Made by a program: the position numbers and the translations under genes. Shown here one piece after another: positions 1 through 18,631 of a stretch of DNA of 32,387 bases; the first letter of the stretch is position 1, and the number at the start of each line of letters is the position of its first letter. The stretch comes from Anaeromonas gelatinilytica (lineage in GTDB: Bacteria; Bacillota; Clostridia; Tissierellales; SIT17), in contig NZ_WSFU01000141.1 in NCBI RefSeq assembly GCF_016820635.1, positions 1-32,387 of the forward strand. Reading direction: 5' to 3'. A model generated the notes under the pieces. The model saw only the letters and a list, made by a program, of their open reading frames with translations. It ran no database searches and was not told where the DNA came from.

Positions 1-122
1 AAGCCTTTGGACTATTATATCAAACTAGAGTAGCATATTCTAATGAATTGCAAAATAGGGTAGATTGAAGAAGGAATTAAACAAACCTATAGGGTTTTAT
101 AATGTTTTGGCAACGATGTATT

Positions 123-7558: not shown

Positions 7559-8245
7559 TCATACTTTACATATCTCAAATAAATCTTTTATTTCTTCTTT
7601 TATTTCATTTATCTTTTCATTTTCATATGGATGAAGTTTGTTTTTACCTACCATTACTAAATCTCCATCTCTAAAATTTTGTAATATATACTTTTTACTT
7701 CCCTTTAAATACTCTGCTATATTTAAAATATCCTCTTTATCTATTAATTCTTTACATAATGTAGTTCTAAATTCATAATCCACACCTGAGTTTCTTATTA
7801 TTTGAATACTTTCTTTTATTTTTTTTACATCTACTATTGAATTAACAACATCTTCATACTTATCAAATGAAGTTTTTATATCCATAGCTATATAATCTAA
7901 TAAATTATTTTCCAGCAGTTTTTTTATTCTATTAGGATTTGTTCCATTAGTATCTAGTTTAACATGAAATCCTTCATCTTTTATTTCTTTAATTAAATCA
8001 TATATGTCATCATATAAAGTTGGTTCTCCACCACTTATCGTAACTGCATCAATAAATTTTTTTCTTTTATTTAAAAACTTAAATATTTCTTCTATATTTA
8101 TATGTGATTTATCATTGTCAACAATATGAGAATTATGACAATAAGGACATTTAAAATTACATCCTTTTATAAATAACACTGTAGATATTTTATCTGGATA
8201 ATCTATAAAAGAACTTTTTTCCATCTCACAAATTTCCATAGCCAT
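7559..8245 (-). CDS. nrdG: Anaerobic ribonucleotide reductase activating protein (radical SAM)
   Basis: Radical-SAM enzyme of about 228 residues. It uses a [4Fe-4S] cluster and S-adenosylmethionine to install the glycyl radical on NrdD. The cluster motif is CNFKCPYC (C-x3-C-x2-C), preceded by SSFIDYPDKISTVLF; the SAM-binding GGEP is in TISGGEPTLY. The start chosen is ATG at 8245, one base after the nrdD stop (TAG T ATG), because any earlier start would run back into nrdD. A second ATG two codons later is also possible. It is co-transcribed with nrdD and ends in a bidirectional terminator. Confidence 0.92.
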   Translation of the reverse strand: MAMEICEMEKSSFIDYPDKISTVLFIKGCNFKCPYCHNSHIVDNDKSHINIEEIFKFLNKRKKFIDAVTISGGEPTLYDDIYDLIKEIKDEGFHVKLDTNGTNPNRIKKLLENNLLDYIAMDIKTSFDKYEDVVNSIVDVKKIKESIQIIRNSGVDYEFRTTLCKELIDKEDILNIAEYLKGSKKYILQNFRDGDLVMVGKNKLHPYENEKINEIKEEIKDLFEICKV

Positions 8246-8246
8246 A

Positions 8247-10352
8247 CTATATTGCCTGCCCATCTTTAAGACTATGACCAGCATCGAATTCTAATCTATC
8301 CTTATATTCTGCTTTTTTTCCTTTATTCCAAGACTGTACTGGTCTATGAAAACCAACTACCCTAGTCCACACCTCTGTATCCTTACCACAATAAGGACAT
8401 TTAAATTGTTCCCCTTTAAGATATCCATGTTCTTCACATATACTATAAGTAGGAGTAATAGTGAGGTAAGGTATTCTACTATTTGCAAAACCTTTCTTTA
8501 ATAATTCTTTCACTGTCTCTATATTATTAATTTCTTCTCCAATAAATCCGTGAAACACTGTTCCTCCAGTATATCTTATTTGCAATTCTTCTTGAAGCTC
8601 TAACGCTTCAAATATATCTTTCGTATGTCCAACAGGCAATTGAGTAGAATTAGTATAATAAGGTTCCTCATCCCCTTGAGTTATAATATTTGGATACATC
8701 CTTTTATCCATTCTTGCAAATCTATAAGCTGCCCCTTCAGCTGGAGATGCTTCTAAATTCCATAAACTTCCTGTCTCTTCTTGAAATATTTGTATAACTC
8801 GATTCATAAATTCCATTATTTCAATAGAAAATTCTAATCCTTCTTCAGAAGTAATATCTTTACCTAATAAGTTCAAACAAGCTTCATTCATTCCATTTAA
8901 ACCAATAGTACTAAAATGATTCTTAAAGTATTCCCCATGTTCATCTTTAATTCCTTGAAGATAATATCTTGAATAAGGATATAACCCTACATTCATATAT
9001 TTTTCTAATGCAATTCTTTTAGTTTCACAAATATTCTTTGCTGTTTCCATTAATTCTCTAACTCTTTTCTTAAATTCTTCCTTAGTCTTCGATATATGAC
9101 CTATTCTTGGCATATTAAGAGTTACTACGTTTATAGATCCAGTCATAGGATTTGCTCCAAACAATCCTCCGCCTCTTTTTCTTAACTCACGATTGTCTAA
9201 ACGCAATCGACAGCACATACTTCTTACATCTTCAGGTTTCATATCACTATTTACAAAATTAGCAAAATAAGGTGTTCCAAATTTCCCAGTCATTTCCATT
9301 ATACTATTAGACACCTCTGAATCCCATGGAAAATCATCTGTTATATTTATAGTTGGAATAGGAAAACTAAAACTTCTTTCAGCTCCATCTCCCTCCATCA
9401 TAACTTCACAGTATGCCTTATTAAACATATCCATTTCCTTTTGAAATTCTCCATAAGTTTTATCCATTATATTCCCACCAATAATTACTGGCATATTCTT
9501 AATCATAGGATGAGGAGTAATATCTAATGTAATATTAGTAAAAGGCGTCTGAAATCCAACCCTAGTTGGTACATTAAGATTAAATATAAATCCTTTCATT
9601 AATTTTTTAACTTCTTTATAATTTAAATTATCATAATATATAAATGGTGCTGCATAAGTATCTAATGAGCTTATAGCCTGAGCTCCAGCGGCTTCCCCTT
9701 GTAATGTATATAACCAATTAACTATCTGTCCTAATAATGACTGTAAATGTTTTGGAGGTTTAGATTCTATTTTTTCTTTTGCTCCTCTAAATCCTTCTCT
9801 TAATAGAGCTTCTAAATCCCATCCACAACAATAAGGTGCTAATAACCCTAAATCATGTATATGAAGATCTCCTTTTATATGGGAATCTCTCATTTTTTTA
9901 GTATAAATTTTATTTAACCAATATTTCTTTGTAATAGACTCTACTATGTGATTATTCAATCCTTGAAGACTAAACCCCATATTTGCATTTTCATTTACTT
10001 TCCAATCTTCCAATGAAACATATTCATCTATCATTTTTTCTGCATCCATAAAAAGATTTTTAACTTCCCTTAACTCTTCATGCTTATTCCTATATAATAT
10101 ATAAGCTTTTGCTGTTTTAGCGTGTCCCTCTTCTATGAGAACTTTTTCGACAATATCTTGTATATCTTCTACATTAGGTATTCCTACACCATAAGCTTCA
10201 CTTAGTATTTTTTCCACCATATTAGAAAGCCTTTGAGCCTCATCGATATTTTTACCGCCAACGGATTTAGCTGCATTAAATATTGCATCTTGAATCTTTT
10301 CTAAATCAAAATCAACTATATTTCCATTTCTTTTTTGAACCCTTGAAATCAA
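8247..10352 (-). CDS. nrdD: Anaerobic (class III) ribonucleoside-triphosphate reductase
   Basis: Glycyl-radical enzyme that makes deoxyribonucleotides without oxygen, 701 residues. The N-terminal ATP-cone (about 1-95) begins SRVQKRNGNIVDFD and provides allosteric control. The catalytic barrel follows. Near the C-terminus is a metal-binding site with C639-x2-H642 and C652-x2-C655, so one expected Cys appears to be His. The glycyl-radical site is Gly667 in RVVGF. The start is TTG at 10352, preceded by GAGGGGGT with about 7-nt spacing. The upstream region has an inverted repeat over a TATAAT -10, reminiscent of NrdR control. It forms an operon with nrdG, 1 nt apart. No aerobic reductase genes are in the window. 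Confidence 0.96.
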   Translation of the reverse strand: MISRVQKRNGNIVDFDLEKIQDAIFNAAKSVGGKNIDEAQRLSNMVEKILSEAYGVGIPNVEDIQDIVEKVLIEEGHAKTAKAYILYRNKHEELREVKNLFMDAEKMIDEYVSLEDWKVNENANMGFSLQGLNNHIVESITKKYWLNKIYTKKMRDSHIKGDLHIHDLGLLAPYCCGWDLEALLREGFRGAKEKIESKPPKHLQSLLGQIVNWLYTLQGEAAGAQAISSLDTYAAPFIYYDNLNYKEVKKLMKGFIFNLNVPTRVGFQTPFTNITLDITPHPMIKNMPVIIGGNIMDKTYGEFQKEMDMFNKAYCEVMMEGDGAERSFSFPIPTINITDDFPWDSEVSNSIMEMTGKFGTPYFANFVNSDMKPEDVRSMCCRLRLDNRELRKRGGGLFGANPMTGSINVVTLNMPRIGHISKTKEEFKKRVRELMETAKNICETKRIALEKYMNVGLYPYSRYYLQGIKDEHGEYFKNHFSTIGLNGMNEACLNLLGKDITSEEGLEFSIEIMEFMNRVIQIFQEETGSLWNLEASPAEGAAYRFARMDKRMYPNIITQGDEEPYYTNSTQLPVGHTKDIFEALELQEELQIRYTGGTVFHGFIGEEINNIETVKELLKKGFANSRIPYLTITPTYSICEEHGYLKGEQFKCPYCGKDTEVWTRVVGFHRPVQSWNKGKKAEYKDRLEFDAGHSLKDGQAI

Positions 10353-10722: not shown

Positions 10723-11280
10723 ATGAACTCAATTGATATTTTAGTAAATGAACATAACAACATAAAAAAAATATTAAAAATTGTTAGATGTATGTGTATA
10801 GAAATTGTAGAAGGAAAAGAAATTAATGGAGATGATTTCCGTGATATTATAGATTTCATCAGAAATTATGCTGACAAATATCATCATGGAAAAGAAGAAG
10901 ATATGTTATTTAAATATATGTCTAAAGAATTATCAAAAGATATTGGTGAAGGTCCCGTAAGAGGAATGTTCATAGAACATGATTACGGTAGAAGCTTTGT
11001 AATACAACTAGACATGGCTATTAAAGCTTATGAAAACGGAAATAATAATGCTAAAGTAGATATTATTGCAAATGCTGTTGGTTATGCTAATTTATTAAAT
11101 AATCATATTACAAAAGAAGATAATGTTATATATAAATATGCATCTAAACATTTGTCTAAAGAAACATTAAATAAATTAGACTCAGAATTTAAGGTTATTG
11201 AAAATAAAAATGAAAATTTAGATAAAAAGAAAAAATATATTGATTTAATTGATAGATTAGAAAAAAAATATAACTGCTAA
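10723..11280 (+). CDS. Hemerythrin-like (HHE) di-iron protein
   Basis: A 185-residue four-helix protein with the residues expected to hold a non-heme di-iron centre: His11 (NEHNNI), His54/His55 and Glu58 (YHHGKEED), His86 (FIEHDYGR) and His128 with Glu132 (NNHITKEDNVIY). This matches the bacterial hemerythrin HHE family. A charged Lys-rich helical tail (about 150-185) follows the core and ends in Cys. In anaerobes such proteins are linked to O2 or NO sensing or scavenging and to iron handling (family knowledge). The actual role here is not shown. The gene is monocistronic, with its own extended -10 promoter and a terminator overlapping its stop codon. Confidence 0.9.
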   Translation: MNSIDILVNEHNNIKKILKIVRCMCIEIVEGKEINGDDFRDIIDFIRNYADKYHHGKEEDMLFKYMSKELSKDIGEGPVRGMFIEHDYGRSFVIQLDMAIKAYENGNNNAKVDIIANAVGYANLLNNHITKEDNVIYKYASKHLSKETLNKLDSEFKVIENKNENLDKKKKYIDLIDRLEKKYNC

Positions 11281-11305
11281 GAGAATATTCTCTTAGCAGT
11301 ATTTC
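11273..11305 (+). terminator. Terminator of the hemerythrin-like gene
   Basis: ACTGCTAAGAGAAT (11273-11286) followed directly by its exact reverse complement (11287-11300), then ATTTC. The left arm includes the stop codon of the gene. Confidence 0.75.
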
Positions 11306-11527: not shown

Positions 11528-11947
11528 TTAATAATATGGATAATAATCATATCCAGGATAGTAATCATATCCGGGATAGTAATCATATCCGGAATAACCA
11601 GGATAATATGGGGAAAAACCATATCCGGGATATCTTCTACGTCTTCTAAGTAAAGAGCCTAATAATGCTAATCCTATAAAATCTCTAAAAAGTCTACGTC
11701 TACCAAAATATGGTCTTTGTTGTGCTGAAATTCCTCTACTCATTGCTCTTCTCTCTCGTAAATCTTCTTCTATCTCAGGATAGTCAACAATTACTTCATC
11801 ATATATTTCATCTATCATTCCCTCTAATTTTTCCTCTGACGGCATATCATACATAGGAGATTCATAAGGATAATGCCTCATTATTGTATCTTCGATCTTA
11901 GGATAAATCTTTTTATAGGTTTCAGGATAAGGTACATCTTGTTTCAT
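11528..11947 (-). CDS. Tyr/Gly/Pro-rich coat-like protein with PGYDYY repeats
   Basis: A 139-residue protein of no family I can name with certainty. The N-terminal half (1-70) is acidic and helical, with several Tyr-Pro pairs (YPETYKKIYPK, MRHYPYESP). The middle is strongly basic (GRRRLFRDFIGLALLGSLLRRRRRYP). The last 35 residues are a Tyr/Gly/Pro repeat (PGYDYY three times). Such Tyr-rich, Gly-rich tails are common in spore coat proteins that become cross-linked (general knowledge). A sigma-K-like promoter (CACC, 16 bp, CATAGGATA) lies just upstream, which supports a late-sporulation mother-cell role (inference). The ribosome binding site is AAAGGAGG, correctly placed before the ATG at 11947. 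The gene stands alone between a terminator and the end of the permease operon. Confidence 0.72.
   Translation of the reverse strand: MKQDVPYPETYKKIYPKIEDTIMRHYPYESPMYDMPSEEKLEGMIDEIYDEVIVDYPEIEEDLRERRAMSRGISAQQRPYFGRRRLFRDFIGLALLGSLLRRRRRYPGYGFSPYYPGYSGYDYYPGYDYYPGYDYYPYY
11545..11598. repeat. Three tandem 18-bp repeats within the Tyr-rich gene
   Basis: AATCATATCCRGGATAGT occurs at 11545-11562 and 11563-11580, and a diverged copy at 11581-11598. They encode the PGYDYY units and can expand or contract by slippage. Confidence 0.85.
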
Positions 11948-12098: not shown

Positions 12099-13469
12099 CT
12101 ATGCTTCTACATTTGAACCTTGAGTTACATCTTCAGTTTTATTTTTTTTAATACCTATTAGTATGACATGTAAAATAATTCCTACTGCTAATCCCCAAGC
12201 TGCTCCTTTAATTGCTAATATTGCTGCCATAACACCTGCAATACCCCTTTGCGTATCTTTAGAACATAAATTCATAGCTAGTCTTGTACAAACATATCCT
12301 TGAACCAACATTGTTAGTGATAATGCAACTGGTAAAATAGGTTCAACTAGAGATACAATAGGTATTAACGCAACAGATATAAATGTTGCTAGCCTAAACG
12401 TTCCTATTCCACCAAATATCGAGTCCATTGCCGAACGTCCTTCTTTATACCTTTGAGCAACAGCTGCTGTTACTGCCGACCAAAGTGGCCCACATAAAGG
12501 AACATAAGGAGTTACTAATGACATAATTATATTTCTAAATCCACTGATTAAATTTGATCTATTTGAATTGAAATCGATTTTTTCATCAGTTCTTACTTCG
12601 TCAGCCTCATTTATCAATGCCTCACTAGTAACAAAATCCCCAAAAGCTATTATATAAACTATGAGTGCCATAGGTACAGCAGCTATAAAAACATCTATTC
12701 CAGGAAAACCTATACCAAATGGACTTACTGTTTGAATAATTCCAAAAAAATCAGGAATATGAATAATTGAACCGAATTCTATCACTGGTGCAGGCAATTC
12801 TTTTGCAATAGGACCTACAATTATACTTATGATTATTGCTGGTAGCATACCATATTTCCCAAACCTGTAAGCAAGTTTGCTTTTCTTCTTTAATCTTCTG
12901 AAACTTTCAGAAAATAATATATAGAAAGAAATAATAGCACCTATACTTATAGATATTGGATATATGCCATATCTTCCTGCGATATCAAACTCTCCAATAA
13001 CTGCTGACAACCCAGCACCTAGTAATATTCCTGCTTTTATAGAATCTGGAACAATATTTATGATTTTACCTGCACTACCTGTAATGCCCATCAATATAAA
13101 AATTATACCAACTAATAATTGTAATGCTATTATTGCATGTATTCTTTCAACTCCTACTGCAAAATTACTTACAAATGCTGTTGTTAATGGTATAGCTGGT
13201 GTAATCCAACCAGGTATAACAGGATCTCCTAATAAAGAATGGATGGAATATAATAATCCATTAATTATTACCATTCCCCATGCAATTTCAAATGGTATTC
13301 CTAATACATCTATCATAATTGGCACAGCACCTAAGCAAGTAGCACACATTAAAATACCTTGTAATGCTTCAGACCATTCCCACTTATAATGTATAAAAGG
13401 TATCCTTACTTTAAATATACCTGCTGATAAATATGGTTGTTCCTTACCATGTTCTCTATATTTGACCAT
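12099..13469 (-). CDS. NCS2/SLC23-like multi-pass permease
   Basis: A 456-residue integral membrane protein with about 12-14 hydrophobic segments, resembling the xanthine/uracil (NCS2, SLC23) permease superfamily. The conserved-looking helix is YIIAFGDFVTSEAL, near residue 275, and a Gly/Pro-rich segment VTPYVPLCGPLWSAV follows. It is the last gene of the 4-hydroxybutyrate operon: its ATG at 13469 is 21 nt after the CoA-transferase stop, with ribosome binding site GGGAGG. That position suggests uptake of 4-hydroxybutyrate or a related short-chain acid rather than a nucleobase. This is inference from context; sequence alone does not define the substrate. No clear terminator was found after it. 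Confidence 0.7.
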   Translation of the reverse strand: MVKYREHGKEQPYLSAGIFKVRIPFIHYKWEWSEALQGILMCATCLGAVPIMIDVLGIPFEIAWGMVIINGLLYSIHSLLGDPVIPGWITPAIPLTTAFVSNFAVGVERIHAIIALQLLVGIIFILMGITGSAGKIINIVPDSIKAGILLGAGLSAVIGEFDIAGRYGIYPISISIGAIISFYILFSESFRRLKKKSKLAYRFGKYGMLPAIIISIIVGPIAKELPAPVIEFGSIIHIPDFFGIIQTVSPFGIGFPGIDVFIAAVPMALIVYIIAFGDFVTSEALINEADEVRTDEKIDFNSNRSNLISGFRNIIMSLVTPYVPLCGPLWSAVTAAVAQRYKEGRSAMDSIFGGIGTFRLATFISVALIPIVSLVEPILPVALSLTMLVQGYVCTRLAMNLCSKDTQRGIAGVMAAILAIKGAAWGLAVGIILHVILIGIKKNKTEDVTQGSNVEA

Positions 13470-13490: not shown

Positions 13491-14789
13491 TTAAAATTTA
13501 ATATTAAATCTTCTTTCATATTCTTTAGCTAAATCAACTCTAAAATCTGGATGAGCAATATTTATTAATGCTTCTGCTCTTTCTCTAAGAGTCTTACCTT
13601 TAAGTTTTGCAATACCATATTCTGTAACTATAAAATCAACATCATTTCTTGAAGTCGTTACTGTAGCTCCTTTATCTAATAAAGGAACTATTTTTGAAAC
13701 TTTACCTTTAGCTGCAGTAGAAGGCATAGCAATTATTGATCTTCCATCCTCTCCCATACTTGCTCCTCTAATAAAATCTACCTGACCACCTACTCCACTG
13801 ATTTGTTTAAGTCCAACACTTTCAGATGCTACTTGCCCCATTAGATCTACCTGTACACAAGAATTTATAGATACCATTTTATAGTTTTTCATTATTACTG
13901 CTGGATTATTAACATAATCTACAGAATGCATTTCTATAGAAGGATTATTATTTGCATAATCATATAATCTCTTGCTTCCCATTAAAAACGTGGCTACTGA
14001 TTTTCCTGGATGAATAGTTTTCTTCTTATTAGTAATTACTCCAGATTCTACTAGTTCTACTACTCCATCAGATATCATTTCAGAATGAATTCCTAAATCC
14101 TTCTTATCTTTTAAAAATAAGAGAACAGCATCTGGAATTGATCCTATTCCTAACTGCAATGTAGAACCATCGTCTATCAGCGAAGCACAGTACTTTCCTA
14201 TCTTCTTTTCTACTTCTCTAATTTTTCCAGGTGTAAGTTCTATAACAGGATGAGAGTTTTCTACAATATAATCTAGATCTGATATATGAATAAAATTATC
14301 TCCCAATATTCTTGGCATTTGATCATTTATTTCTGCAATTATCAATTTAGCCATTTCAGCTGCTGGTTTTGTGTAGTCATTTGAAACACCAAAGCTACAG
14401 TACCCATGATCATCTGGAGATGTAAGTTGTACTAGAGCAACATCCACAGGTAGATCTTCTCTTAAAAGTTTTGGAACTTGATAAAAGAAACAAGGAGTAA
14501 AATCTGCTTTTCCAGAATTAATTGCTTTCCTTGTTGCTCTACCAGCGAAAAGTGCATTATGCCTAAAATAAGGCTCCATACCATCTTTTACATATTCGGC
14601 ATTCCCCATAGGTACCAAATGCACTATTTCAACATCTGAATATATATCTTTATTCTTAACCATTACATCTAGAAAAAGAGATGGTTCTCCTACAGCATGC
14701 CCTACAACAACTCTATTCTTGGATTTAATATTTTTTACTGCTTTTTCTGGAGTAACTATTTTGTCTTTATATATTGATTTCCAATTCAA
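13491..14789 (-). CDS. abfT: 4-hydroxybutyrate CoA-transferase
   Basis: Family I-type CoA-transferase, 432 residues, like Cat2/AbfT of clostridia. It moves CoA from acetyl-CoA (or butyryl-CoA) to 4-hydroxybutyrate to give 4-hydroxybutyryl-CoA, the substrate of AbfD. The catalytic Glu is Glu237 in GIHSEMISDG. The CoA-binding motifs LQLGIGSIPDAV and GVGGQVDFIRGA are intact, and the family's TEYGIAKLKGKTLRERA ending is present. The start is TTG at 14789, one base after the stop of the upstream Cys-rich gene, with AGGGGGA inside that gene serving as ribosome binding site. Specificity for 4-hydroxybutyrate is supported by abfD in the same operon. Confidence 0.93.
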   Translation of the reverse strand: MNWKSIYKDKIVTPEKAVKNIKSKNRVVVGHAVGEPSLFLDVMVKNKDIYSDVEIVHLVPMGNAEYVKDGMEPYFRHNALFAGRATRKAINSGKADFTPCFFYQVPKLLREDLPVDVALVQLTSPDDHGYCSFGVSNDYTKPAAEMAKLIIAEINDQMPRILGDNFIHISDLDYIVENSHPVIELTPGKIREVEKKIGKYCASLIDDGSTLQLGIGSIPDAVLLFLKDKKDLGIHSEMISDGVVELVESGVITNKKKTIHPGKSVATFLMGSKRLYDYANNNPSIEMHSVDYVNNPAVIMKNYKMVSINSCVQVDLMGQVASESVGLKQISGVGGQVDFIRGASMGEDGRSIIAMPSTAAKGKVSKIVPLLDKGATVTTSRNDVDFIVTEYGIAKLKGKTLRERAEALINIAHPDFRVDLAKEYERRFNIKF

Positions 14790-14790
14790 A

Positions 14791-15066
14791 TTATTTTCCC
14801 CCTATTAACATTTTATCTAACTTAGATTTAAGCTTTTGATAATCTTCTATATCTTTAATTACCATTTTTCCATTTATTCCTTTTAATTCTTCATGTTTTA
14901 TACATGAACTCATACACCCAGATAAAATAACTACAAAATGACACATTTCATTATTGATCCTTGTAATAATATTAATATCTAAGTAATCCTCTTTTAATCG
15001 TTCAATTACACTTTTGCGATCATATCTTACATTACATCCCCCACAATATTTAACACATATATTCAT
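14791..15066 (-). CDS. Small CGGC-type cysteine protein of the abf operon
   Basis: A 91-residue soluble protein with seven cysteines counting Cys4, Cys8 and Cys11 at the N-terminus (NICVKYCGGCNVRYDR). A middle pair occurs as SGCMSSC, and others are at MCHF and near the end of that segment. The CGGCN-x-RYDR motif looks like a metal or thiol site. I recall similar small proteins beside clostridial CoA-pathway genes but know of no assigned function. It sits between the NifU-like gene (8-nt gap) and the CoA-transferase gene (1-nt gap), so it is certainly co-expressed with them. A role in iron-sulfur handling or redox protection of AbfD is a reasonable guess only. Confidence 0.75.
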   Translation of the reverse strand: MNICVKYCGGCNVRYDRKSVIERLKEDYLDINIITRINNEMCHFVVILSGCMSSCIKHEELKGINGKMVIKDIEDYQKLKSKLDKMLIGGK

Positions 15067-15074
15067 CTATATCC

Positions 15075-15353
15075 CTACTTATTTGTTCTTAATATTTTTT
15101 TTGCAAAATTATACAAATCCTCATTAACATCATTGTGTAAAATAACTTCTTTAATATCCAAAATATTTTCTTTTAATTTATTCTCTATTATTTCTTCTAC
15201 AGTATACTTTGCTGAAGGACAACCTTTACATTGGCCCAATAGCCTTATGTGAAGCCTTCCATTTTCATAAGATAATACTTCAATATCACCATAATGATTT
15301 GATAAATAAGGTCTTATTTCTCTTGTTATAACTTCTTCAATTCTATTAAACAT
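15075..15353 (-). CDS. NifU C-terminal-domain-like Fe-S scaffold protein
   Basis: A 92-residue protein equivalent to the C-terminal Nfu domain, with the conserved CxxC in LLGQCKGCPSAKYTVEE. Nfu proteins carry or transfer [4Fe-4S] clusters. AbfD, encoded 50 bp upstream, needs a [4Fe-4S] cluster, so this protein probably serves that enzyme (inference from position). The start is ATG at 15353, preceded by AAGGAG. The domain matches the usual length of about 75-80 residues plus a short helical tail. Confidence 0.85.
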   Translation of the reverse strand: MFNRIEEVITREIRPYLSNHYGDIEVLSYENGRLHIRLLGQCKGCPSAKYTVEEIIENKLKENILDIKEVILHNDVNEDLYNFAKKILRTNK

Positions 15354-15403: not shown

Positions 15404-16858
15404 CTATTCTTTAATATTAGCTATTCTTTTAGCTAATTTCTTTTTATGCTGCAAATTTCCTTGTCTTGCTATCATAATTCTCTGTGCTTGAGGAGATCCA
15501 GCACCATGCATAGACTCAGTTCTATATCCTACAGCCGCAGTACCTAACGATAGGTTTTCAATTAATCGTAAAATTCGTAATCGATTTTCCGTTGAAACAG
15601 ATGAAACCCCTACTAAGTATTTTTCTATATATGGTCCTATTTTTTCATTTCTAAAATCATCTTGAGAAGGTGCTGTAACCATCAATCCACCAGCTATATC
15701 TTCTGCTAACCTTACTATTTCATAAGGGAATCTAGTAACATTTTGTTTACATACATTAGCAAGAAGAAGGTCTATTATATAGTTACCAGAATCAGTTGGA
15801 TATCCTTCTGATGAACAAGCAATACCACACGCATATAGTGTTTCATTTAAATGGGTCATTTCAATCAACTTATCTTTTACATGTGATGCCTTTGCCGCTC
15901 CATTATACTCTGCAGCAAGTGCTGCTGACCCAATTAAAACATCACCCACTCCAACTTTACATCCGCCATAGCTTTGTCTATGATAACCTGCAAATCTTTC
16001 TACTAACATTCCAGCAAATTCCGTTTCACCATTCAGAAAAATTCTATCATTTGGAACAAAAACATCATCAAATATAACTAAAGCTTCCATTCCTCCAAAT
16101 TCTCTATTTCCTAAATCCATATCCGCATTTTCTTCTAATTTTCTTGTATCACATGATTGACGACCAATAACCATAAAAATACCTTCTGTATCTGTTGGTA
16201 CTGAAAATGAAATGGCATAATCTTTATCCTCTGGCTTCATAGCTTGAGTTGGCATAACTAAAACTTCATGGGAGTTCACTATACCTGTTTGATGAACTTT
16301 TGCCCCTCTAACAACTACTCCATCTTCTCTTCTCTCAACAACTCTTAAGTACAAATCAGGATCTACTTGTTGACTTGGTGGTAAACCTCTGTCTCCTTTT
16401 GGATCAGTCATTGCTCCATCAACAGTATAATCATTTTCCTCAACTAGTTTCATAAATTCTTTAAATCTTTGATGATAATTAGTTTTTAATGTTTTGTCAA
16501 TTTCATAAGTTGTGCTATATTGAGAATTAAAAGCATCCATCCCAACACATCTCTGAAAACAAGAAGCGGTCTTTTGTCCAAGCAATCTTTGCATTTTTAC
16601 TTTTTTAACTAAATCATCTGTACTAAAATGAATATTATTAAAACGATTAATCTTATTTCCAGTAATTAAAGATGTAGCAGTCATGAGATCCTCATGTTCT
16701 GGAAGTTGAGCTAAATCATAGGTCATTTTTACAGAATTCATAGAAGGTCTTAAAATTGGATTATCTACAACATTTTCTATAAATTCTCCAAACATATAAA
16801 CTTTTAAGTTTAACTTTCTCAAACTCTCTACATATTCTTCACCTGTCATTAAAGCCAT
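15404..16858 (-). CDS. abfD: 4-hydroxybutyryl-CoA dehydratase / vinylacetyl-CoA isomerase
   Basis: Homotetrameric FAD and [4Fe-4S] enzyme that converts 4-hydroxybutyryl-CoA to crotonyl-CoA by a ketyl-radical route. It is 484 residues and full length, with strong similarity to the Clostridium aminobutyricum enzyme as I remember it. The four cluster ligands are present: two Cys in TASCFQRCVGMDAF (equivalent to C99 and C103), His in AGYHRQSYGGC and the Cys ending that motif (H292 and C299). The segments DGAMTDPKGDRG, AKVHQTGIVNSHE and YRTESMHGAGSPQAQR are family hallmarks. The start chosen is ATG at 16858, about 9 nt after AAAAGGA; ATG 16867 lies too close to it. First gene of a five-gene operon under a sigma-54 promoter. 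Genes for succinic semialdehyde formation and reduction are not in the window. Confidence 0.97.
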   Translation of the reverse strand: MALMTGEEYVESLRKLNLKVYMFGEFIENVVDNPILRPSMNSVKMTYDLAQLPEHEDLMTATSLITGNKINRFNNIHFSTDDLVKKVKMQRLLGQKTASCFQRCVGMDAFNSQYSTTYEIDKTLKTNYHQRFKEFMKLVEENDYTVDGAMTDPKGDRGLPPSQQVDPDLYLRVVERREDGVVVRGAKVHQTGIVNSHEVLVMPTQAMKPEDKDYAISFSVPTDTEGIFMVIGRQSCDTRKLEENADMDLGNREFGGMEALVIFDDVFVPNDRIFLNGETEFAGMLVERFAGYHRQSYGGCKVGVGDVLIGSAALAAEYNGAAKASHVKDKLIEMTHLNETLYACGIACSSEGYPTDSGNYIIDLLLANVCKQNVTRFPYEIVRLAEDIAGGLMVTAPSQDDFRNEKIGPYIEKYLVGVSSVSTENRLRILRLIENLSLGTAAVGYRTESMHGAGSPQAQRIMIARQGNLQHKKKLAKRIANIKE

Positions 16859-16902
16859 CACAATCATTCCTTTTCTATTTATTTAAATCTAATTAATATC
16901 GT

Positions 16903-16918
16903 TGCAATATCTATGCCA
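16903..16918 (-). promoter_or_regulatory. Sigma-54 (-24/-12) promoter of the abf operon
   Basis: On the minus strand, TGGCATAGATATTGCA. The consensus is TGGCAC-N5-TTGCA, with one mismatch (C to T at position 6) and GG and GC exactly 10 bp apart. Transcription would start near 16892, about 34 nt before the abfD ATG. The divergently placed sigma-54 activator gene upstream makes this assignment convincing. Confidence 0.82.
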
Positions 16919-17065
16919 TATATCCAACTATACTCTAAATAATTGTTTTAATATAGATTTTTATAAACCTATAATAGACTGTATATATAAGCTCAACCCA
17001 CAATATATTTTCTTTCAGGATAATTTATTTATAACATGAGAACTCCATATTTCTACACAAGAAAA

Positions 17066-17119
17066 AAACTACTAATTTAATTTAGTTGTAAAAATGCAAC
17101 TAAATTAAATTAATAGTTT
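17066..17119 (-). terminator. Large hairpin terminator of the sigma-54 activator gene
   Basis: Two 23-nt arms (17066-17088 and 17097-17119) with one mismatch enclose an 8-nt loop. On the minus transcript they are followed by GTTTTTTTCTTG. It ends the activator message before it can read into abfD. The top of the stem coincides with one copy of the candidate activator site. Confidence 0.75.
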
Positions 17120-17185
17120 CTTATTACTTTATATTGGTATATATGTTTAGTAGTTGCATTTTTGCATCTGTTGCAAAAATGCAAT
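17085..17185. promoter_or_regulatory. Three candidate upstream activator sites
   Basis: Imperfect 16-bp palindromes of the form GTTGCA-N4-TGCAAC: GTTGTAAAAATGCAAC (17085-17100), GTTGCATTTTTGCATC (17153-17168) and GTTGCAAAAATGCAAT (17170-17185). The last two are 17 bp apart and together also form a 13-bp inverted repeat around TCTGT. They lie about 190, 255 and 272 bp upstream of the -12 element, distances usual for sigma-54 activators. Binding by the neighbouring Fis-type HTH is inferred. Confidence 0.65.
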
Positions 17186-18631
17186 TTAACTACGTTCATA
17201 TCGTTGTCTTTTTCTTACAAAAGTAGATGGATGCATTCCTAAATATTTCGCTGCATCTCTTACATTGTTAAATTTTTCATAAGCCCTATCCATAATATTT
17301 TTTTCATACTGTTTAATTAATTTGTCTAAATTGATATTTTCTGTTGGAAATTCAACATGAGGCATAGTCAAAGAAAGATCTAAATCAACGGGTAAATCTC
17401 TGACTGTTATTATGTCTGAATTACTAACAACTACAAGTCTTGCTATCATATTCCTAAGCTCTCTTATGTTACCTGGCCATTTATATTTAACTAGAATTTT
17501 AACAACATCTTGATCAATCTTTTTATTGAACCCAAGTTTTAAATTTAATTCATTAAGAAAATGTTCAATTAATATCGGAATGTCTTTTTTTCTTTCTCTA
17601 AGAGGAGGTATAGTTACTGGTACAACATTTAATCTATAATACAAATCCTCTCTAAATAATTTTCTTTTAACCAAATTTTCAAGATTTCTATTTGTAGCTG
17701 CTACAATTCTTATATCTACTTTAATAGACTTGGTCCCTCCAACTCGAATAATTTCATTTTCTTGTAGTACTCGTAGAAATTTAACCTGCATATCTAAAGA
17801 AAGCTCTCCTACTTCATCTAAAAAAACTGTTCCACCATTAGCGGTTTCAAAAATACCCATTTTCCCATTTTTATCTGCTCCACTAAATGATCCCTTCTCA
17901 TATCCAAACAGCTGACTTTCTATAAGATTTTCAGGAATAGCTCCACAGTTTACTTTTAAAAAATACTTGTCCTGTCTTCTACTATTTTCATATATATACC
18001 TTGCAATAACCTCTTTTCCAACGCCTGACTCACCTAACAATAAAACTGTCAAGTCCATAGGTGCAATTTTTTTAGCTTTTTTTAATACTTCTAACATTTG
18101 TTTATCTTCTGCTATAATTTGTGAATACCTTAGTGCTTGAGATTTAATAGATTCAATTTCAGAATAATATCTTTTGCTTATTTCTTCACTTCTAGTAAGC
18201 TTTTCGGTCAATTCATTAAGCTTAGTAATATCTCTAACATTGGTTACAACCATGCTTATATTACCTTCTTCATCGATTACCGGATTCGAAGAAATTAATA
18301 CTGTTTTACCATTGTTAAATGTTTGTTCTATTGTTACTGACTTCTTTTTTTCTAAAACTAATAACGTTCCAGATTCAGATATTATACCATCTTTCACTAT
18401 ATCTCTCATATTTCTTCCTATTACATTCTTAACCTTTATGCCTGTTATCTCTTCATAGGATTTATTCACTAAAATTGTATTAGCATTACCATCAGTTATG
18501 TAAATTCCATCGTATGAATTATCAATAACCGCGTCAAGCTGTGAACATATAGTTCTCATTTTTTCTATTTCTTTTTTTGGATCTTCATTTTCTCTGTAGA
18601 ATGAAGATATCCTCTCATTAACCCTATACAT
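17186..18631 (-). CDS. Sigma-54-dependent transcriptional activator (PAS, AAA+, Fis HTH)
   Basis: Enhancer-binding protein, 481 residues. A PAS sensor domain (about 30-140, beginning LDAVIDNSYDGIYITDGNAN) is followed by a short coiled linker. The AAA+ domain (about 168-400) has Walker A GESGVGKE (200-207), Walker B GTVFLDEVGE (267-276) and the sensor/R-finger region LFREDLYYRLNV. The C-terminal Fis-type HTH (about 440-478) is DAAKYLGMHPSTFVRKRQ. The sigma-54 contact loop reads GSFSGA (247-252) instead of GAFTGA, a conservative variant. No receiver domain, so the signal is probably a small molecule or redox state sensed by PAS. The ATG at 18631 has GGGGGA upstream. Adjacent to the abf operon and its sigma-54 promoter, it is the evident activator of those genes. 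Confidence 0.94.
   Translation of the reverse strand: MYRVNERISSFYRENEDPKKEIEKMRTICSQLDAVIDNSYDGIYITDGNANTILVNKSYEEITGIKVKNVIGRNMRDIVKDGIISESGTLLVLEKKKSVTIEQTFNNGKTVLISSNPVIDEEGNISMVVTNVRDITKLNELTEKLTRSEEISKRYYSEIESIKSQALRYSQIIAEDKQMLEVLKKAKKIAPMDLTVLLLGESGVGKEVIARYIYENSRRQDKYFLKVNCGAIPENLIESQLFGYEKGSFSGADKNGKMGIFETANGGTVFLDEVGELSLDMQVKFLRVLQENEIIRVGGTKSIKVDIRIVAATNRNLENLVKRKLFREDLYYRLNVVPVTIPPLRERKKDIPILIEHFLNELNLKLGFNKKIDQDVVKILVKYKWPGNIRELRNMIARLVVVSNSDIITVRDLPVDLDLSLTMPHVEFPTENINLDKLIKQYEKNIMDRAYEKFNNVRDAAKYLGMHPSTFVRKRQRYERS

What the first reader, a model, noticed from the sequence alone, without database searches (positions are those of the whole stretch)
16903..17185. Sigma-54 circuit controlling 4-hydroxybutyrate conversion
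A -24/-12 promoter with a single mismatch (TGGCAT-N5-TTGCA) sits directly before abfD. The next gene upstream encodes a PAS/AAA+/Fis sigma-54 activator. Between them lie three copies of GTTGCA-N4-TGCAAC at 190-275 bp from the promoter. All parts of an enhancer-driven switch are present in one place. I do not recall sigma-54 control being established for abfD/abfT operons.
Basis: partly seen in the sequence, partly recalled or inferred. Interest (0 to 1): 0.78.

Follow-up and report, generated by a model that had tools for sequence, protein, structure and literature searches.

The report
Sigma-54 switch for 4-hydroxybutyrate operon
A bacterium related to clostridia appears to switch on its 4-hydroxybutyrate-using genes with an ATP-driven activator that binds three DNA sites upstream; the arrangement looks real and is shared by many relatives, but this kind of control was already predicted in print in 2019.

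Summary
A -24/-12 element (16918-16903, minus strand) lies 35 bp before the listed abfD start. Three near-palindromes, each one mismatch from GTTGCA-N4-TGCAAC, lie between it and a PAS/AAA+/Fis activator gene; rpoN is in the genome. Comparison supports the reading: 31 of 80 fetched abfD loci carry a related activator and together hold 47 such palindromes (in 22 of the 31), against a mean of 0.6 for permuted half-sites. All 30 loci of the activator group with an intact sigma-54 contact loop have a -24/-12 match upstream of abfD or its operon.

It is not new in kind. Nie et al. 2019 (PMC6615313) list an activator group, XanR, controlling abfD-nifU-hyp-ach-golB by sigma-54, and a 2025 survey names the dehydratase COG. 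Both are computational for this operon.

Two additions that my few searches did not find in print: the promoter-proximal site is the tip of a long hairpin here (the activator gene's terminator) and in 9 of the other 28 promoters compared; and one Lachnospiraceae/Eubacterium clade keeps the DNA-binding helix and operators beside abfD but lacks the contact loop and the -24/-12 site, suggesting a change to sigma-70 control.

The parts
17186..18631 (-). XanR-like sigma-54 activator: PAS, AAA+ (contact loop GSFSGA), Fis-type HTH with helix NVRDAAKYLGMHPSTFVRKR
   Evidence: Pfam PAS, Sigma54_activat E 1.7e-70, HTH_8; motif check; HTH shared with operator-linked relatives
17170..17185 (.). activator site (distal 1), directly after the activator stop codon
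   Evidence: 1 mismatch to GTTGCA-N4-TGCAAC; pair pitch 17 bp here, 18-19 bp in most relatives with a pair
17153..17168 (.). activator site (distal 2)
   Evidence: conserved partner of distal 1
17085..17100 (.). activator site (promoter-proximal), at the tip of the terminator hairpin
   Evidence: a third site 57-101 bp from the pair recurs
17069..17116 (-). likely intrinsic terminator of the activator gene, enclosing the proximal site
   Evidence: 20-pair stem counted plus T7; RNA fold of 17055-17125 -26.7 kcal/mol, z -7.9
16903..16918 (-). -24/-12 promoter TGGCATAGATATTGCA; start of transcription predicted near 16892
   Evidence: position conserved in relatives
15404..16867 (-). abfD, 4-hydroxybutyryl-CoA dehydratase/vinylacetyl-CoA isomerase (start probably 16858)
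   Evidence: phmmer to 1u8v E 2.8e-242
15075..15353 (-). NifU-like iron-sulphur protein
   Evidence: Pfam NifU E 3.5e-22
14791..15066 (-). small conserved protein (hyp)
   Evidence: no Pfam family; homologues beside abfD in many of the 80 loci
13491..14789 (-). 4-hydroxybutyrate CoA-transferase (AbfT type; by position 'ach' of Nie et al.)
   Evidence: 3eh7 E 1.9e-170, 3gk7 E 4.7e-159
12099..13469 (-). NAT/SLC23-fold permease, last gene of the presumed operon
   Evidence: AlphaFold model, mean pLDDT 82; Foldseek 7tak TM 0.89, 40% identity

Best explanation
This is a sigma-54 switch of the XanR group acting on one operon. A PAS-domain activator is made from its own gene, whose transcripts end at the hairpin at 17116-17069 (inferred). 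On an intracellular signal, perhaps 4-hydroxybutyrate or a CoA ester of it (guess), it assembles on the paired sites at 17153-17185 and on the third site at 17085-17100. It loops to sigma-54 polymerase at 16918-16903 and opens the promoter by ATP hydrolysis. The operon then makes AbfD, an iron-sulphur protein, an AbfT-type CoA-transferase and a permease, so that 4-hydroxybutyrate becomes crotonyl-CoA and feeds butyrate fermentation. Shown: sequence parts, rpoN, gene identities, cross-genome conservation. Inferred: binding, looping, ligand, transport substrate, co-transcription and expression.
For: Sites present; activator domains and rpoN. 47 palindromes in 31 activator-bearing loci against mean 0.6, maximum 3, for 20 permuted half-sites. 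A -24/-12 match within 150 bp of abfD in 22 of 30 intact-loop loci; in the other 8 it lies further up, between activator and abfD in seven and before the permease in L050 (read); against 7 of 43 loci without such an activator in the held stretch (Fisher p 1e-6, relatedness not corrected). All 20 activators followed by a site share one HTH helix. No sigma-70-like match, at that scan's threshold, on the minus strand between terminator and abfD. Enzyme identities.
Against: The contact loop is GSFSGA, a double variant; of 29 group activators checked, 20 have GAFTGA, 9 GSFTGA and none GSFSGA. 9 of 31 activator-bearing loci hold no palindrome with at most 1 mismatch. In the three same-genus genomes the best matches are 39-54% identical, the 54% one over the AAA+ part only. 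Ligand unknown; no sucD or 4hbD-like gene was recognised in the operon. Nothing experimental.
Confidence: 0.87

Rival explanations
1. The proximal site at 17085-17100 is only the activator gene's terminator; the working enhancer is the distal pair alone.
For: Long hairpin with T run, z -7.9. L013, L017 (abfD promoter) and L026 show only a pair and no third site with at most 2 mismatches.
Against: A terminator does not need GTTGCA-N4-TGCAAC at its tip, yet the consensus is kept there in loci with and without an extended stem (without: L008, L009, L018, L068).
Confidence: 0.15
2. The activator works through sigma-70, as proposed for the loop-less relatives, and the -24/-12 match is accidental.
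For: Loop-less relatives with the same HTH sit beside abfD without a -24/-12 site; the window's own loop is a double variant.
Against: The window's activator keeps Walker A, Walker B and a contact loop; its sites lie far upstream; a -24/-12 match is conserved in position.
Confidence: 0.05
3. The sites are real but the activator's main targets lie elsewhere; abfD is a side target.
For: Nie et al. list a second XanR target, acp-caiC-luxEC; L024 and L017 show further palindrome plus -24/-12 pairs.
Against: In this assembly (98.7% complete) no other place outside reading frames matches with at most 1 mismatch.
Confidence: 0.04

Closest known systems
XanR regulon of Clostridium (Nie et al. 2019, PMC6615313; parts 1-3 of 6 of the text and passages seen)
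   Same: Sigma-54 activator group; target abfD-nifU-hyp-ach-golB has the window's gene order for the first four genes; motif described as distinct from the TGT-ACA type
   Different: Fifth gene called golB there, a NAT-fold permease here; listed for Clostridium only; the XanR motif and site table are in a figure and a supplement that I could not see
PrdR (proline reductase activator)
   Same: Best NCBIfam hit of the activator, covering residues 22-478
   Different: 433.6 bits against a cut-off of 795; operator type TGT-N10-12-ACA and proline target in Nie et al.
Loop-less sigma-70 bEBPs (Rhodobacter and Caulobacter NtrC, VspR; passages of PMC10274813)
   Same: The side clade found here likewise lacks the L1/GAFTGA loop
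   Different: That clade is PAS-type, mostly beside abfD, and branches inside the XanR-like group

Membership tests
Sigma-54 (bEBP) activator circuit | AAA+ Sigma54_activat domain with Walker motifs and a GAFTGA-type loop | tested here: met
   E 1.7e-70; GESGVGKE, GGTVFLDE, loop as the variant GSFSGA
Sigma-54 (bEBP) activator circuit | -24/-12 promoter, rpoN in genome, upstream sites | tested here: met
Sigma-54 (bEBP) activator circuit | rpoN-dependent transcription | not testable with these tools
   needs bench work
XanR group (Nie et al. 2019) | target operon abfD-nifU-hyp-ach | tested here: met
   against Table 1
XanR group (Nie et al. 2019) | golB as fifth gene | tested here: inconclusive
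   fifth gene here is a NAT-fold permease; what golB denotes is not said in the text seen
XanR group (Nie et al. 2019) | same XanR binding motif | not testable with these tools
   motif is in Fig. 3 and Table S3, not available; text says only that it is distinct
PrdR equivalog NF041552 | score over curated cut-off | tested here: not met
   433.6 against 795 bits
AbfD | close match to the solved enzyme, with the segments holding the iron-sulphur ligands | tested here: met
   segments ASCFQRCVGMDAFN and FAGYHRQSYGGCKVGVGDV identical to 1u8v; that they hold the ligands is recalled

The most novel reading that the evidence does not exclude
The abfD regulator group changed sigma factor once. In a Lachnospiraceae/Eubacterium clade the regulator lost its sigma-54 contact loop and abfD lost its -24/-12 promoter, while the PAS sensor, the HTH and the TGCAAAAATGCA-type operators stayed beside the same target, now close to the abfD start. 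Separately, the sigma-54 type often nests an enhancer site in the tip of the activator gene's own terminator.
Probability: 0.65. Interest if true: 0.55.

Novelty: new member of a known kind. Interest (0 to 1): 0.42.

Why it matters
It extends a computational prediction made for Clostridium to a motif with defined spacing shared by several families, testable in one footprint. It also points to a natural experiment in which one regulator type, operator and target occur with and without sigma-54.

Tried and rejected
Considered and dropped: chance palindromes (permuted half-sites); PrdR identity; a wider regulon in this genome (the other two sites are inside reading frames); a second abfD (one match only); the second Sigma54_DBD match at C83, which lies in a reading frame that I read by eye as a LevR-type activator. 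No tRNA in the window.

Literature: no paper with all terms for enhancer sites in terminators or for GAFTGA with 'sigma54-independent' and 'loss'; one search listed loop-less and TyrR-type papers, of which I saw passages of two. Term searches for 4-hydroxybutyryl-CoA dehydratase with sigma-54, for CoA-transferase with enhancer binding protein and one search gave none, although PMC6615313 and PMC12316311 bear on it under other words. PMC6615313: parts 1-3 of 6 and passages seen; PMC6510779, PMC7438776, PMC8225356, PMC12069270, PMC12316311, PMC10274813, PMC6375630: term finds only.

Against my reading: 9 of 31 activator loci lack a palindrome with at most 1 mismatch; only 18 of 30 have one with at most 2 mismatches within 450 bp of abfD; in L016 the sites after the activator do not lie before abfD; the extended hairpin is seen at 10 of 29 promoters only, one of them (L017, 2246) not after an activator gene; six activators with the same helix have no site with at most 1 mismatch in the 700 bp searched. 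The Fisher and Mann-Whitney tests ignore relatedness. By the loop pattern nine rows lack the loop; two of them (L099, L101) lie outside the clade described.

Full report
What is there. On the minus strand the order is activator (18631-17186), three near-palindromes (17185-17085), a -24/-12 element (16918-16903), abfD (16867-15404), a NifU-like protein, a small conserved protein, an AbfT-type CoA-transferase and a permease. AbfD matches solved 4-hydroxybutyryl-CoA dehydratase 1u8v at E 2.8e-242. The transferase matches 4-hydroxybutyrate CoA-transferases 3eh7 and 3gk7. The permease has no Pfam family over its cut-off, but its model (mean pLDDT 82) matches the NAT transporter 7tak at TM 0.89 and 40% identity. 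The genome has rpoN, 12 matches to the activator at E <= 1e-60 counting itself, one abfD and 16 exact TGGCAY-N5-TTGCW sites against none for the reversed control.

More than chance. With 2 mismatches allowed the promoter motif is expected 2.7 times in the window, so alone it would be weak. The palindromes are rare: 4 against 0.41 expected in the window, and genome-wide 5 places with at most one mismatch, three of them here and two inside reading frames.

Conservation. Of 423 places encoding AbfD relatives the best 80 were kept. 31 of 80 hold an activator at 44% identity or more; these loci hold 47 palindromes with at most one mismatch, in 22 of the 31, against a mean of 0.6 and a maximum of 3 for 20 permuted half-sites. 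The other 49 loci hold 8 palindromes in 6 loci. A common layout is a pair at 17-19 bp pitch after the activator stop codon, a third site 57-101 bp nearer the promoter, then the -24/-12 site. Other layouts exist: pair only in L013, L017, L026; one distal site only in L030 and L074; pitch 13 in L024; divergent operons with -24/-12 sites on both sides of shared palindromes at 24-28 bp pitch in L056, L063, L065. Of 30 loci whose activator has the group's HTH and an intact contact loop, 22 have a -24/-12 match within 150 bp of abfD. In the other 8 it lies further up: between activator and abfD in L010, L012, L022, L025, L035, L044 and L052, and before the permease in L050 (read). Loci without such an activator in the held stretch: 7 of 43. 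Among 70 activator-like frames, all 20 with a site in the 700 bp after them share the helix [NS]-V-R-x-A-A-x-x-L-x-[MI]-x-x-[SA]-T-[FL]-V-R-K-R; of the 50 others 6 have it.

A site inside a terminator. In the window the promoter-proximal site is the tip of a hairpin of 20 or more pairs followed by seven T, fold z -7.9. Outward pairing of 8 or more bases beyond the 16-mer is seen at the proximal site of 10 of 29 promoters (window, L003, L005, L019, L025, L030, L035, L042, L074 after an activator gene; L017 at 2246 elsewhere), and at none of 44 distal sites, where the maximum is 6 (recounted; Mann-Whitney p 9e-5, relatedness not corrected). T runs after the stem vary and were not tested as terminators outside the window. 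The simplest reading is that the activator's terminator doubles as an enhancer site and also shields abfD from read-through; no sigma-70-like match falls between terminator and abfD on that strand.

A clade that may have left sigma-54. Seven activator relatives (L014, L036, L041, L043, L045, L119, L120) lack the GAFTGA loop. They form one clade (SH-aLRT 100, quick tree) inside the XanR-like part of the tree. PAS and an AAA+ domain were confirmed by Pfam in two of them (L045, L041). Six of seven lie beside abfD; for L120 the held stretch shows none. None of the five in the 80-locus set has a -24/-12 match within 150 bp of abfD; four of five have a palindrome with at most two mismatches within 450 bp, 12 bp before the start in L041 and 31 bp in L045 (by arithmetic). 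Four of the five genomes have rpoN; none was found in that of L014. Loop-less activators acting on sigma-70 promoters are known elsewhere (passages of PMC10274813). Here the sigma-70 step is inferred, not shown.

What was known. Nie et al. 2019 list XanR with target 'abfD-nifU-hyp-ach-golB, acp-caiC-luxEC', Butyrate/Butanol synthesis, Clostridium, among predicted sigma-54 regulons, with a motif distinct from the TGT-ACA type. Their gel shifts covered other promoters. A 2025 survey says COG2368, including 4-hydroxybutyryl-CoA dehydratase, is sigma-54 regulated primarily in Clostridia. I found no bench test for this operon (searches; finds). So the finding is a new member of a described, predicted kind. 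Identity with XanR rests on gene order, because the motif figure and site table were not available.

Limits. Ligand, transport substrate, co-transcription and expression are inferred. The contact loop GSFSGA is the main sequence-level doubt: of 29 group activators checked 20 have GAFTGA and 9 GSFTGA. PMC6615313 names GSFTGA and GAFSGA as variants that still allow activation, not the double variant. The locus is patchy: among the matches listed for 41 genomes, the activator at 50% or more over most of its length is seen only in G000, G015 and G005.

Noticed in passing
window 4-76 (+): RAGATH-18 RNA, 72.5 bits against gathering 44.9, just before a reading frame at 102-1205 (nitronate-monooxygenase-like by eye).
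   Followed up: no
L014, L036, L041, L043, L045, L119, L120: Activator relatives without GAFTGA loop, six of seven beside abfD, operators kept in most, no -24/-12 site found: possible change of sigma factor.
   Followed up: partly
L056, L063, L065: Divergent nifU-hyp and abfD-ach units with a -24/-12 match on each side of shared palindromes.
   Followed up: partly
L024 about 8123-8311 (+) and a minus-strand site at 7971; L017 2073-2261: Further palindrome plus -24/-12 pairs away from abfD, possible extra regulon members.
   Followed up: no
G000:C83:43000-45726 (L125): Large activator frame with GAFTGA, LevR-like by eye, whose N-terminal part matches the Sigma54_DBD model weakly; similar weak matches in about 1000-residue frames of G049 and G051.
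   Followed up: partly
window 11273-11300: Hairpin with a 12-pair stem that scores as terminator-like on both strands, between convergent reading frames 10723-11280 (+) and 11528-11947 (-).
   Followed up: no
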